Below are positions 39,059 to 41,382 of a stretch of 64,000 nt of DNA, in pieces. The position numbers were made by a program, and so were the translations under genes. The notes under the pieces were generated by a model. That model had not been told where the DNA came from and did no database searches. It saw only the letters and a program-made list of their open reading frames with translations. The stretch's first letter is position 1; the number at the start of each line of letters is the position of its first letter. Source of the DNA: Ralstonia sp. NFACC01 (lineage in GTDB: Bacteria > Pseudomonadota > Gammaproteobacteria > Burkholderiales > Burkholderiaceae); NCBI RefSeq assembly GCF_900115545.1, contig NZ_FOWV01000006.1, positions 111,235 through 175,234 on the forward strand, in the 5' to 3' direction.

Positions 39059-39451
39059 TTAACGCTTCGAGAACTGCTTGGCGCGGCGGGCCTTGCGCAG
39101 ACCAACCTTCTTACGCTCGACTTCACGTGCATCGCGCGTCACCAGACCGGCCTTCGACAGGGCGGGCTTGAGCGTTGCATCGTAATCGATCAGGGCACGG
39201 GTGATGCCGTGACGCACCGCACCGGCTTGGCCGGTTTCACCGCCGCCGACCACGTTCACCTTGATGTCGAACGTAGCTGCGTGGTTGGTCAGTTCCAGCG
39301 GCTGACGCACGATCATCAGCGAGGTTTCACGAGCAAAGTACTCGTTGATGGCCTTGCCGTTGACGATGATGTCGCCCTTGCCGGACTTGATGAAGACACG
39401 TGCCACAGCGCTCTTGCGGCGGCCGGTGCCATAGTTCCAGTTTCCGATCAT
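39059..39451 (-). CDS. rpsI: 30S ribosomal protein S9
   Basis: 130 residues, the normal length. Starts [19 protein letters not shown] and ends with the basic [14 protein letters not shown] tail that reaches the P-site tRNA. 12 bases after rplM, the universal L13-S9 operon. Confidence 0.98.
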
Positions 39452-39463
39452 GGATTAGGCCCC

Positions 39464-39892
39464 TTAGATTTCCAGCGCTTTCGGCTGCTGAGCTTCGTGC
39501 GGATGCGAGCCTTCGGCGTAAACCTTCAGCTTCTTGATCATCGCGTAGCCCAGCGGACCCTTCGGCAGCATGCCCTTCACAGCCTTCTCCAGGGCGCGGC
39601 CCGGGAAACGCTGCTGCATCTTGCCAAACGTCGTTTCGTAGATACCGCCCGGGTAACCCGAGTGGCGATAGTACTTCTTGTCGGTCGTCTTGGCGCCCGT
39701 CACACGCAGCTTGGCTGCGTTGATAACGATGATGAAATCGCCGGTATCGACGTGCGGAGTGAATTCGGGCTTGTGCTTGCCGCGCAGTCGGTGTGCCACT
39801 TCGCTGGCGACACGCCCGAGGACCTTGTCCGTCGCGTCAATCACGTACCAATCGCGCTTCACCTCATGGGGCTTTGCGGAAAAGGTCTTCAT
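39464..39892 (-). CDS. rplM: 50S ribosomal protein L13
   Basis: 142 residues, matching E. coli L13. Starts [30 protein letters not shown] and contains [18 protein letters not shown] and [12 protein letters not shown]. First gene of the rplM-rpsI operon, preceded by a long structured leader. Confidence 0.98.
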
Positions 39893-40145: not shown

Positions 40146-40177
40146 GAAAAAAAACCCAAGCCATCAAGCTTGGGTTT
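40146..40177 (-). terminator. Intrinsic terminator of the candidate small RNA
   Basis: Ten-base stem AAACCCAAGC and GCTTGGGTTT, 6-base loop, then a run of eight T on the minus strand. The run is on the minus side only, so it serves a minus-strand transcript, and the only promoter upstream before rnpB is the one at 40265-40292. Confidence 0.9.
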
Positions 40178-40259
40178 GAATCCACCAAAGGAGGAGGGTG
40201 GAGGAGACACCTGCTGATCGTTGACTTGGTGGGTTGCACCGCATCAGCCGATCCAATGG
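40148..40259 (-). ncRNA. Candidate small RNA with looped anti-Shine-Dalgarno motifs
   Basis: A free-standing unit of about 110 nt on the minus strand, between the rplM promoter and the OsmC-like gene. It has its own promoter (40292-40265) and an intrinsic terminator. In transcript order: a 5' segment with GCTGAT, able to pair with ATCAGC downstream; CCACCAA (40232-40226) pairing with TTGGTGG (40188-40182); then the terminator stem. The 37-base loop of the middle stem contains CTCCTCC (40206-40200) and CCCTCCTCC (40198-40190), which continues as CCTCCTTT, matching the anti-Shine-Dalgarno tail of 16S rRNA (ACCUCCUUA in E. coli). Alpha-proteobacterial sRNAs with CCUCCUCCC loops (CcsR and cuckoo types) are known precedents. 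No protein-coding frame is visible. Confidence 0.6.
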
Positions 40260-40264
40260 TGCAA

Positions 40265-40292
40265 ATTATACCCATTTCTGGGGCACACGCAA
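40265..40292 (-). promoter_or_regulatory. Promoter of the candidate small RNA
   Basis: Minus strand: TTGCGT (40292-40287), 16-base spacer, perfect TATAAT (40270-40265). Start expected at 40258-40260. The spacing is one base below optimum and only TTG of the -35 matches consensus. Confidence 0.65.
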
Positions 40293-40592
40293 GGAAATTT
40301 GCACTACGAAATCTCATTTCGTAATACGGAAAGAAAGTCAAGGACCGAAAAATCACGATATCCATTTTCAAATCAATTACTTACGCATCTCCTGTACTCA
40401 ACCGCTTGCTTTCCGCTAGAGATATTCCTCGAATTTCCGCGCGATTTCGGTGCAAGAAAGTCGGGTTGCACCTTTTCGGGCGGGTGTCACTGTCAAGCCG
40501 CGTTGACCCTAAGGTGTCAACGCGCGCGAGGACCGATGACTACAATGTGGCTTTTCGTCGGCGATCGTCGACCCTCTGCACAAGGATTGGAC
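40293..40592. other. 300-base AT-richer intergenic stretch before the OsmC-like gene
   Basis: This stretch, particularly 40300-40430, is visibly richer in A and T than its surroundings and contains no reading frame that resembles a gene. It should hold the promoter of the OsmC-like gene, but I cannot single out a hexamer pair. Confidence 0.5.
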
Positions 40593-41039
40593 ATGGATTG
40601 CACAGTGAGCTGGACTGGCCCGGATGGGATGGCCTTTTTGGCGGAAACCGGCAGCGGCCATCTCGTCACGATGGATGGCGCACCCGACGGCGGCGGCCGC
40701 AACCTTGCACCGCGCCCGATGGAAATGGTCTTGCTAGGCACCGGTGGCTGCACCGCCTATGACGTGGTGCTGATTCTCAAGCGAGGCCGCCAGGACGTGC
40801 AAGGTTGCAGCGTCAAGCTGCATGCCGACCGCGCCGAGACCGATCCGAAGGTCTTCACGCGCATCCACTTCACCTTCACGGTGACGGGGCGCAAGCTGAA
40901 GCGGGAAACGGTCGAACGCGCCGTGCAGCTTTCGCACGAGAAGTACTGCTCAGCGTCGATCATGCTGGCCAAGACGGCCGAGATCACGCACTCGTTGGAA
41001 CTGGTGGACTTGGCCACGCAGCCGACGGCATCGGAATAA
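40593..41039 (+). CDS. OsmC/YhfA-family redox protein
   Basis: 148 residues of the OsmC/Ohr superfamily, which reduces organic hydroperoxides through two cysteines. Both are present: Cys53 (GTGGCTAYDVV) and Cys119 (EKYCSASIML). The order and spacing fit the YhfA-like subgroup, whose physiological substrate is less certain than for Ohr. ATG 40593 is supported by AAGGA 6-10 bases upstream. The reading frame is open far upstream, but that part shows no family similarity. Its stop is only five bases from the 3' end of the convergent RNase P RNA gene. Confidence 0.9.
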   Translation: MDCTVSWTGPDGMAFLAETGSGHLVTMDGAPDGGGRNLAPRPMEMVLLGTGGCTAYDVVLILKRGRQDVQGCSVKLHADRAETDPKVFTRIHFTFTVTGRKLKRETVERAVQLSHEKYCSASIMLAKTAEITHSLELVDLATQPTASE

Positions 41040-41044
41040 GAAGC

Positions 41045-41382
41045 GAAGCAGACCGATAAGCCGGATTCTGTGCGCCGCGTGGCCGAAACCAGCGGCGTGA
41101 CAACCATTCCTCTAGACCGGCTGTTGCCAGCCGGCTCAAGCTCCCTACCCGCAGGCTCAGCGAGCCGCTTCATCGCCTGCTTACTTGGGATTGCTCCGGG
41201 TGGAGGTTACCGCGTTTCACCCTTCGCCCTGACCGAAGCCGGGGCGAAGACTCGTCTCTGTGGCCCTATTCCGCACGTCACCGTGGATGGTCGTTAGCCA
41301 TCACCCTGCTCTATGGAGTCCGGACTTTCCTCCCCTTCCACTCGCACGAGGCGGCGGAAGCAGCGGTTGTCTGGTCCGCTTC
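41045..41382 (-). ncRNA. rnpB: RNase P RNA (class A)
   Basis: Catalytic RNA of RNase P, which trims tRNA 5' leaders. On the minus strand the P1 strands GAAGCGGACC (5' end, 41382) and GGTCTGCTTC (3' end, 41045) pair. The universally conserved GAGGAAAGTCCGGACTCC, CAGGGTGATGG, GGGTGAAACGCGG, the GAATGG-type joiner and the 3' block AGAATCCGGCTTATCGG are all present in order. About 338 nt. It is convergent with the OsmC-like gene. Confidence 0.96.

What the first reader, a model, noticed from the sequence alone, without database searches (positions are those of the whole stretch)
40148..40259. Free-standing ~110-nt RNA displaying anti-Shine-Dalgarno motifs in a stem-loop
Seen: perfect TATAAT, a terminator with eight T, and between them a 7-bp stem CCACCAA/TTGGTGG enclosing CTCCTCC and CCCTCCTCC, the latter running into CCTCCTTT, which resembles the 16S 3' tail. 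A competing GCTGAT/ATCAGC pairing could open or close the loop. Known: alpha-proteobacterial CcsR and cuckoo sRNAs carry CCUCCUCCC loops. Inference: an sRNA that pairs with ribosome-binding sites of many mRNAs, or sequesters a protein such as Hfq. Its position between rnpB and the rplM-rpsI promoter, both translation-related, is suggestive.
Basis: partly seen in the sequence, partly recalled or inferred. Interest (0 to 1): 0.8.

Follow-up and report, generated by a model that had tools for sequence, protein, structure and literature searches.

The report
Known anti-ribosome-site RNA, perhaps storage-controlled
The stretch encodes a member of an already known family of small bacterial RNAs that block the start sites of many messenger RNAs, and comparison across relatives suggests that the family is switched by PhaR, the protein that senses stored bioplastic (polyhydroxybutyrate).

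Summary
In detail: a minus-strand RNA gene at 40147-40258 with a perfect TATAAT, anti-Shine-Dalgarno repeats and a terminator. It is not new: it scores 71.3 bits (cut-off 50) as Rfam RF02278, 'Betaproteobacteria toxic small RNA'. Synteny (osmC-sRNA-rplM) and the predicted length of its Burkholderia counterparts make it the Ralstonia orthologue of ncS27. The window is about 95% identical to R. pickettii over one 8-kb locus. The relative S17 is a published, Hfq-dependent repressor at ribosome-binding sites. Here, complementary sites lie before transporter and catabolic genes.

The new part is the promoter. RF02278 promoters carry TGCRNYGCA, the published operator core of PhaR, the repressor titrated by polyhydroxybutyrate granules. 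It lies within 150 nt upstream in 59 of 77 phaR+ genomes and 1 of 29 phaR- genomes, often at the -35 box. This predicts a link from carbon storage to shutdown of carbon uptake, and a candidate for the unidentified repressor of Bordetella S17. The window's own copy has lost the -35 operator and keeps an intact core only in its leader, so its control by PhaR is uncertain.

The parts
40147..40258 (-). sRNA gene (Ralstonia orthologue of ncS27), predicted primary transcript of 112 nt
   Evidence: TATAAT ends 6 nt before 40258; conserved CATTGG start; a start at the same CATTGG gives 92 nt in two Burkholderia and one Paraburkholderia locus, the published ncS27 length
40146..40209 (-). Rfam RF02278 match; about the expected processed form (first base near 40208-40209)
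   Evidence: 71.3 bits, gathering 50; the published S17 cleavage site GU|GU has the same letters here; processing not tested
40265..40270 (-). -10 box TATAAT
   Evidence: kept in 16 of 16 same-genus orthologues
40278..40292 (-). -35 region TTGCGTGTGCCCCAG, read here as a decayed PhaR operator (inference)
   Evidence: Cupriavidus gilardii L202 has TTGCGTCGCACAA at the corresponding place; Pandoraea 12 of 12 and Paraburkholderia 2 of 2 keep the core, Cupriavidus 1 of 10 and Burkholderia 0 of 2; same-genus forms
40231..40247 (-). candidate PhaR site in the leader, CTGATGCGGTGCAACCC (core TGCRNYGCA intact, 15 of 17 letters of the published palindrome)
   Evidence: core kept in 13 of 16 orthologues; not beyond chance on its own
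40211..40258 (-). 5' leader with predicted hairpin SL1
   Evidence: RNA fold; a leader hairpin of different sequence is predicted in two Burkholderia and one Paraburkholderia orthologue
40200..40209 (-). anti-Shine-Dalgarno site 1, UGUCUCCUCC
   Evidence: nearly invariant in 32 copies aligned
40181..40202 (-). hairpin SL2 UCCACC/GGUGGA with loop CUCCUCCUUU (anti-SD site 2, includes the 16S-tail-like CCUCCUUU)
   Evidence: five pairs counted: 154 of 154 cells paired, 13 cells changed on both sides, in 2 of the 5 pairs
40147..40177 (-). intrinsic terminator SL3 with eight T
39464..39892 (-). rplM (ribosomal protein L13), conserved downstream neighbour
   Evidence: Pfam PF00572; synteny
40593..41039 (+). 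OsmC-like gene, conserved divergent neighbour
   Evidence: Pfam PF02566; synteny

Best explanation
The feature is a Ralstonia member of the RF02278 'toxic'/double-hairpin sRNA family, the orthologue of ncS27. A sigma-70 promoter makes a 112-nt RNA; cleavage before GUCUCC probably gives a stable RNA of about 63 nt with two single-stranded CU-rich sites that pair, probably with Hfq, with ribosome-binding sites of transporter and catabolic mRNAs and block their translation. Shown here: family membership, synteny, hairpin covariation, operator motif and its co-occurrence with phaR, complementary sites before metabolic genes. Inferred: processing, Hfq, pairing, PhaR binding and its sign. For the window's own copy the -35 operator is absent, and PhaR control would have to act through the leader site or be lost.
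For: Membership: (16 of 16 genomes of the genus). Synteny: both rplM and the OsmC-like gene in 16 of 16 genus loci and 18 of 22 named Burkholderiaceae loci. Hairpin. PhaR motif: TGCRNYGCA within 150 nt upstream in 59 of 77 phaR+ and 1 of 29 phaR- genomes; shuffles mean 2.5, maximum 6 of 77; 8 of 394 background windows; best of 128 palindromes, next best 6; of 64 such sites, 44 have a -10-like hexamer downstream and 31 of these at exactly 17 nt (38 at 16-18); 18 of 18 phaR+ families; families of one state 14 of 14 against 0 of 6, within-family randomisation P 0.012. Named loci with the exact 30-nt core: 87 of 115. The motif is the published PhaR/PhbF site and sits twice at one own-genome phasin promoter. 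Second copy in the genus: 14 of 14 loci fetched. Three double-hairpin RNAs rise 4.3- to 8.0-fold in glucose medium. Precedent: PhaR (AniA) represses sRNA MmgR in S. meliloti. Targets.
Against: No transcript, binding or regulation was measured here. 18 of 77 phaR+ genomes and 28 of 115 named loci lack the motif within 150 nt. In the window copy the -35 operator is gone and the leader match has no significance by itself: matches to the full consensus with up to 3 mismatches are as frequent as in shuffles (96 against 100). At this locus 9 of 10 Cupriavidus and 2 of 2 Burkholderia named loci lack the core within 220 nt. The second phasin gene of the own genome shows no core within its 3.3-kb locus. 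The within-family test rests on 7 phaR- genomes in three families, plus one 85% complete genome that keeps the motif. With one mismatch allowed the motif no longer separates the groups (4 of 18 against 5 of 28 motif-negative loci). An unrelated regulator that co-occurs with phaR is not excluded. Two of the five hairpin measures do not stand out from shuffles (pairs changed on both sides 130 of 500, further pair types 39 of 500). GGAGGAGAC is itself a strong Shine-Dalgarno sequence, so part of the target signal is expected anyway.
Confidence: 0.8

Rival explanations
1. An RF02278 sRNA controlled mainly by another signal (for instance ppGpp, or a regulator at the conserved palindrome 40305-40323), with PhaR control lost in the rplM-linked copy of Ralstonia, Burkholderia and most Cupriavidus.
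For: No intact -35 operator in 16 of 16 genus orthologues, 9 of 10 Cupriavidus and 2 of 2 Burkholderia named loci; a palindrome around TACGAAAT-N3-ATTTCGTA is conserved just upstream. NmsR of Neisseria depends on relA.
Against: An intact PhaR core in the leader in 13 of 16; Pandoraea 12 of 12, Paraburkholderia 2 of 2 and C. gilardii keep the core.
Confidence: 0.45
2. The upstream motif is only a promoter element (-35 of TTGC type), not an operator.
For: 31 of 44 scored sites lie exactly 17 nt before a -10-like hexamer.
Against: Palindromic extension beyond the hexamer, identity with a published PhaR site and a footprinted PhbF site, near-absence in phaR- genomes that keep the sRNA (1 of 29), sites at a phasin promoter.
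Confidence: 0.08
3. A protein sponge (for Hfq or another protein) or an RNA that acts on the ribosome itself, not an mRNA-pairing regulator.
For: CCUCCUUU resembles the 16S tail (recalled); overexpressed ncS27 slows growth.
Against: In S17, compensatory mutations in sRNA and target restored repression; sites 1 and 2 conserved as sequence, with complementary RBSs.
Confidence: 0.07
4. One reading: a 7-bp CCACCAA/TTGGTGG stem with a GCTGAT/ATCAGC switch.
For: The letters can pair; 98.9% and 93.6% of cells pair, mostly because the region hardly varies.
Against: No compensatory change; competes with the conserved SL2; the Burkholderia, Paraburkholderia, Pandoraea and Cupriavidus leaders printed do not carry CCACCAA.
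Confidence: 0.04

Closest known systems
ncS27 and the double-hairpin RNAs ncS03/ncS05/ncS62 of Burkholderia cenocepacia (Rfam RF02278, Betaproteobacteria toxic sRNA)
   Same: Same Rfam family, same two CU-rich sites and hairpins; rplM-linked locus and 92-nt prediction in two other Burkholderia match ncS27
   Different: Ralstonia leader is 20 nt longer (112 nt); a PhaR operator, not named in the 2017 paper's main text, is here proposed for the family. The J2315 sequence was not fetched
S17 of Bordetella pertussis
   Same: Published 27-nt region conserved across Betaproteobacteria, RNase E site GU|GU, anti-RBS sites; published promoter TTGCAT-17-TACTAT, found with the PhaR core in named Bordetella hinzii and genomosp. 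1 loci
   Different: Other leader and genome place; high in the Bvg+ mode, repressor unidentified. The B. pertussis sequence was not fetched
NmsR / NgncR_162-163 of Neisseria (RF02877)
   Same: Three stem-loops with UC-rich sites complementary to Shine-Dalgarno sequences; metabolic targets; E. coli growth defect
   Different: Window scores 30.4, below the cut-off of 52; tandem genes; stringent control
MmgR of Sinorhizobium meliloti
   Same: An sRNA repressed by PhaR/AniA, as reported in PMC12542648 and PMC8401924 (passages)
   Different: Alphaproteobacterial; reported to lower phasin levels; homology not tested

Membership tests
RF02278 Betaproteobacteria toxic sRNA | Covariance score above the curated cut-off | tested here: met
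   71.3 against 50 bits, positions 1-64 of 64
RF02278 Betaproteobacteria toxic sRNA | Two hairpins with CU-rich anti-RBS stretches and a terminator | tested here: met
RF02278 Betaproteobacteria toxic sRNA | Growth inhibition of E. coli when cloned | not testable with these tools
   published for relatives; S17 was not clearly toxic
ncS27 orthologue | Place between osmC-like gene and rplM | tested here: met
   both genes in 16 of 16 genus loci and 18 of 22 named Burkholderiaceae loci (same locus, up to 8 kb)
ncS27 orthologue | Own promoter and 92-nt transcript in Burkholderia | tested here: met
   two Burkholderia and one Paraburkholderia locus predicted at 92 nt, published 92 nt; the J2315 sequence itself was not fetched
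NmsRb RF02877 | Score above the cut-off | tested here: not met
   30.4 against 52 bits
PhaR regulon | phaR in the genome | tested here: met
   PF07879, 111.7 bits
PhaR regulon | PhaR operator in the promoter, this copy | tested here: inconclusive
   no -35 site; leader core intact in 13 of 16, 15 of 17 consensus letters
PhaR regulon | PhaR operator in promoters of the sRNA family | tested here: met
   59 of 77 phaR+ against 1 of 29 phaR- genomes
PhaR regulon | PhaR binds and the level responds to polyhydroxybutyrate | not testable with these tools
   bench work
CcsR / cuckoo sRNAs | Homology to alphaproteobacterial CCUCCUCCC-loop sRNAs | tested here: inconclusive
   no such family among the hits; whether Rfam holds them was not checked

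The most novel reading that the evidence does not exclude
The whole RF02278 family is a polyhydroxybutyrate-responsive regulon arm: PhaR sits on the promoters of these sRNA genes, mostly at the -35 box, in most phaR-bearing Burkholderiales; storage granules remove it, and the released anti-Shine-Dalgarno RNAs shut down import and catabolism of many carbon sources. PhaR would then also be the unidentified repressor of S17 in Bordetella, and lineages that lost phaR kept the sRNA but lost the operator.
Probability: 0.72. Interest if true: 0.72.

Novelty: new member of a known kind. Interest (0 to 1): 0.55.

Why it matters
The RNA itself belongs to a described family. What would matter is its control: a widespread set of RNAs that block many ribosome-binding sites, whose inducing signal is left open in the papers seen here, would gain a defined sensor (granule-bound PhaR) and a simple logic, storing carbon while closing the intake. 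It makes the unidentified repressor of one studied member directly testable, and would add a post-transcriptional arm to storage-polymer regulation; a 2021 review calls riboregulation of this process in Cupriavidus necator undeciphered (PMC8401924, passage).

Tried and rejected
Rejected: the 7-bp CCACCAA/TTGGTGG stem and the GCTGAT/ATCAGC switch. Rejected: membership of NmsRb, anti-hemB, ncS16 and ar14, all below cut-off. Set aside: the third own-genome hit at C12 (31.7 bits, below cut-off), which I take for a terminator look-alike without testing it. Led nowhere: the full 17-letter PhaR consensus with 3 mismatches does not discriminate in the window. The first OsmC query was read one base out of frame; repeated in frame. 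Start sites of the Pandoraea and Cupriavidus leaders rest on poor -10 picks (3-4 of 6) and are not used.

Papers: PMC11722255 (abstract, outline, Results, Discussion); passages found by term in PMC5688073, PMC4603805, PMC10987360, PMC7011215, PMC12849132, PMC12542648, PMC3206438, PMC5362039, PMC9049629, PMC8401924 and PMC11332829; others as search listings only. The 2012 paper that named the toxic RNAs is not held; the 2019 NcS27 paper was seen only as cited in a review. That PhaR has not been tied to these RNAs in print rests on (20 of 792 papers listed; 3 of 3; 12 of 12) and on term searches of six papers, in an open-access library only; supplements were not read, and the 2017 paper's Fig. 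S3, which shows the 'common upstream motif', was not seen.

Rows left out of counts: order-level test, 106 of the 114 genomes over the cut-off (rows beyond its listing were not fetched), one locus each; four extra loci (L198-L201) were fetched and not counted. That searches drew the same 300 genomes is inferred from their handles. Named loci: all 120 that the capped scan brought in are held; one search counted the 80 printed (59 of 76), all 120 (87 of 115, 5 with under 150 nt upstream dropped). Pair count: 32 copies chosen by hand from the 137 printed.

Full report
What is there. On the minus strand, between a divergent OsmC-like gene (40593-41039, +; PF02566) and rplM-rpsI (39464-39892 and 39059-39451, -), lies a gene for a small RNA. 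TATAAT is at 40265-40270, the predicted start at 40258, anti-Shine-Dalgarno site 1 at 40200-40209, hairpin SL2 at 40181-40202 and the terminator at 40147-40177 with eight T. rnpB is at 41041-41382 (-).

What it is. Rfam assigns it to RF02278, Betaproteobacteria toxic small RNA, at 71.3 bits against a cut-off of 50. The own genome holds a second copy over the cut-off (C10, 54.9 bits) and a weak third match (31.7 bits). In the genus, 16 of 16 genomes have both a copy like the window's and the second copy; in the family 133 of 150, and in the order 114 of 300 genomes exceed the cut-off; 0 of 14 control genomes do. The window is about 95% identical to Ralstonia pickettii SSH4 over one 8-kb locus.

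Orthology. Both rplM and the OsmC-like gene lie in the same locus in 16 of 16 loci of the genus, in 18 of 22 named Ralstonia, Cupriavidus, Pandoraea, Burkholderia and Paraburkholderia loci, and in 14 of 26 order loci outside the family (an earlier run, used an out-of-frame OsmC query). Two Burkholderia loci and one Paraburkholderia locus predict a 92-nt RNA, the published length of ncS27, whose neighbours are given as BCAL3348a and BCAL3349. That BCAL3348 is rplM is recalled, not looked up.

Structure. Five pairs of hairpin UCCACC/GGUGGA were counted on 32 copies chosen by hand: 154 of 154 cells pair, 13 cells are changed on both sides (0 of 500 shuffles reach this), all in 2 of the 5 pairs, the other 3 never varying; the number of pairs changed on both sides (130 of 500) and of pair types (39 of 500) does not stand out. 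RNAalifold on the same alignment predicts 13 pairs, 10 with at least one change on both sides, seven of these in the terminator, where many cells are broken or misaligned. The single-strand fold prefers a leader hairpin, SL2 and the terminator.

How relatives work (published). Three double-hairpin RNAs of B. cenocepacia rise in glucose medium (4.3- to 8.0-fold), biofilm and starvation; overexpressed ncS27 slows growth (PMC5688073, passages). S17 of B. pertussis is cut by RNase E, depends on Hfq, and represses a target through site 1, restored by compensatory mutations; the authors postulate an unidentified repressor of its promoter (PMC11722255, Results and Discussion). NmsR of Neisseria pairs with Shine-Dalgarno regions of TCA-cycle genes (PMC5362039, passages).

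Targets here. GGAGGAGAC followed within 10 nt by ATG gives 21 matches (18 sites) in the own genome, against 1 for the reversed pattern and 7 when AC is swapped to CA. The 18 genes were scanned with NCBIfam and, for ten, Pfam: four MFS transporters, a citrate:proton symporter, a sugar-binding protein, two branched-chain or urea-type ABC transporter parts, PaaG, acetoacetate-CoA ligase, a fatty acid-CoA ligase, a PaaZ-like dehydratase-type protein, a tannase-family esterase, an iron-sulphur subunit of a xanthine dehydrogenase-like enzyme, a hydrolase, a TonB receptor, a DUF2957 protein, and one site inside a chemotaxis receptor gene. Many NCBIfam scores are below the curated cut-offs, so names are approximate; PaaG, acetoacetate-CoA ligase, citMHS and the D-galactonate-type transporter pass theirs. 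No list of all genes was scanned as a background, so enrichment for transport is an impression.

The promoter. Reading upstream regions showed TTGC-N-GCA palindromes at one fixed place in many copies: 26 of 30 family loci and 14 of 14 second-copy loci of the genus, 35-36 nt before the core, about where -35 lies. The published PhaR palindrome of R. eutropha is YTKNTGCRNYGCANMAR (PMC12849132, passages), and H. seropedicae PhbF protects a region with TG[N]TGC[N]3GCAA (PMC3206438, passages). The own genome has phaR; one of its two phasin genes has two such sites at its promoter, the other none in its locus. Genome-wide, TTGCRNYGCANNA has 127 matches against 61 for the reversed pattern.

Test. Among 106 order genomes with one sRNA locus each, TGCRNYGCA lies within 150 nt upstream in 59 of 77 with phaR (PF07879) and 1 of 29 without. 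The one exception, G271, is an 85% complete genome; the two other members of its family in the sample, G186 and G230, have phaR. Controls: 2.5 on average and at most 6 in shuffles; 8 of 394 windows elsewhere in the same loci; best of 128 palindromes of that form, the next at 6; of 64 sites (counted), 44 have a -10-like hexamer and 31 of these a 17-nt spacer. By family: 18 of 18 phaR+ families have it at least once; families of one state give 14 of 14 against 0 of 6; randomising within mixed families gives P 0.012. Against: 18 phaR+ genomes lack it within 150 nt; with one mismatch allowed, 4 of these 18 and 5 of 28 phaR- loci show something similar, so the weak form is uninformative. In named loci with the exact 30-nt core (120 from a scan that stopped at its limit), 87 of 115 with enough upstream sequence have the core within 150 nt.

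The window's own copy. At -35 it reads TTGCGTGTGCCCCAG where C. gilardii reads TTGCGTCGCACAA. At this locus the intact core is kept in 12 of 12 Pandoraea and 2 of 2 Paraburkholderia, but only 1 of 10 Cupriavidus and 0 of 2 Burkholderia named loci (within 220 nt), so loss at the rplM-linked copy is common in this family; decay rather than gain is my inference. The core TGCRNYGCA occurs in the leader at 40231-40247 in 13 of 16 orthologues, downstream of the start. That match is not beyond chance on its own. PhaR control of this copy is therefore open, while the second copy in this genome has the standard site.

Link to S17. Eight of eight order-sample f4 genomes with phaR and 8 of 8 named Bordetella loci (one record is a MAG labelled B. 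parapertussis) carry the PhaR core upstream. The published S17 elements, TTGCAT-17-TACTAT, occur exactly in order loci L071 and L077 and in 8 of the 120 named loci, among them Bordetella hinzii and genomosp. 1, where TTGCAT is the first half of TTGCATCGCACAA. B. pertussis itself was not fetched, and phaR was not sought in these named genomes. PhaR is thus a candidate for the postulated repressor.

Verdict. The predicted control of the family by PhaR is the part worth testing. Searches and six papers searched by term did not show it in print; supplements and subscription papers were not seen. The 2017 paper mentions 'a common upstream motif' in three of four homologues without naming it in its main text.

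Noticed in passing
window 40305-40323 (-) and the 15 genus orthologues: A conserved palindrome around TACGAAAT-N3-ATTTCGTA, followed by GTGCAAATT, lies just upstream of the sRNA promoter; related forms are seen in Cupriavidus gilardii and Paraburkholderia. Its binding protein is unknown.
   Followed up: partly
L280 298-327 and 675-704; rows G355:C10 and G384:C1: Two nearby copies of the sRNA in Pigmentiphaga and in two order genomes, recalling the neisserial siblings.
   Followed up: no
L174, L183, L197: Three small-genome relatives (g13) with one copy whose SL2 loop has lost the CCUCC repeat (CCCAAACAT), leaving only site 1.
   Followed up: no
G000:C16:637326-637338 and C16:608121-608133: PhaR-type sites about 350 nt before the phaR domain start and at one phasin promoter of the own genome.
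   Followed up: partly
L122, L127, L134, L142, L150, L167, L185, L192: Copies from phaR-less genomes score partly, below cut-off, against NmsRb, anti-hemB or ar14 as well as RF02278, which suggests that these Rfam families shade into each other.
   Followed up: partly
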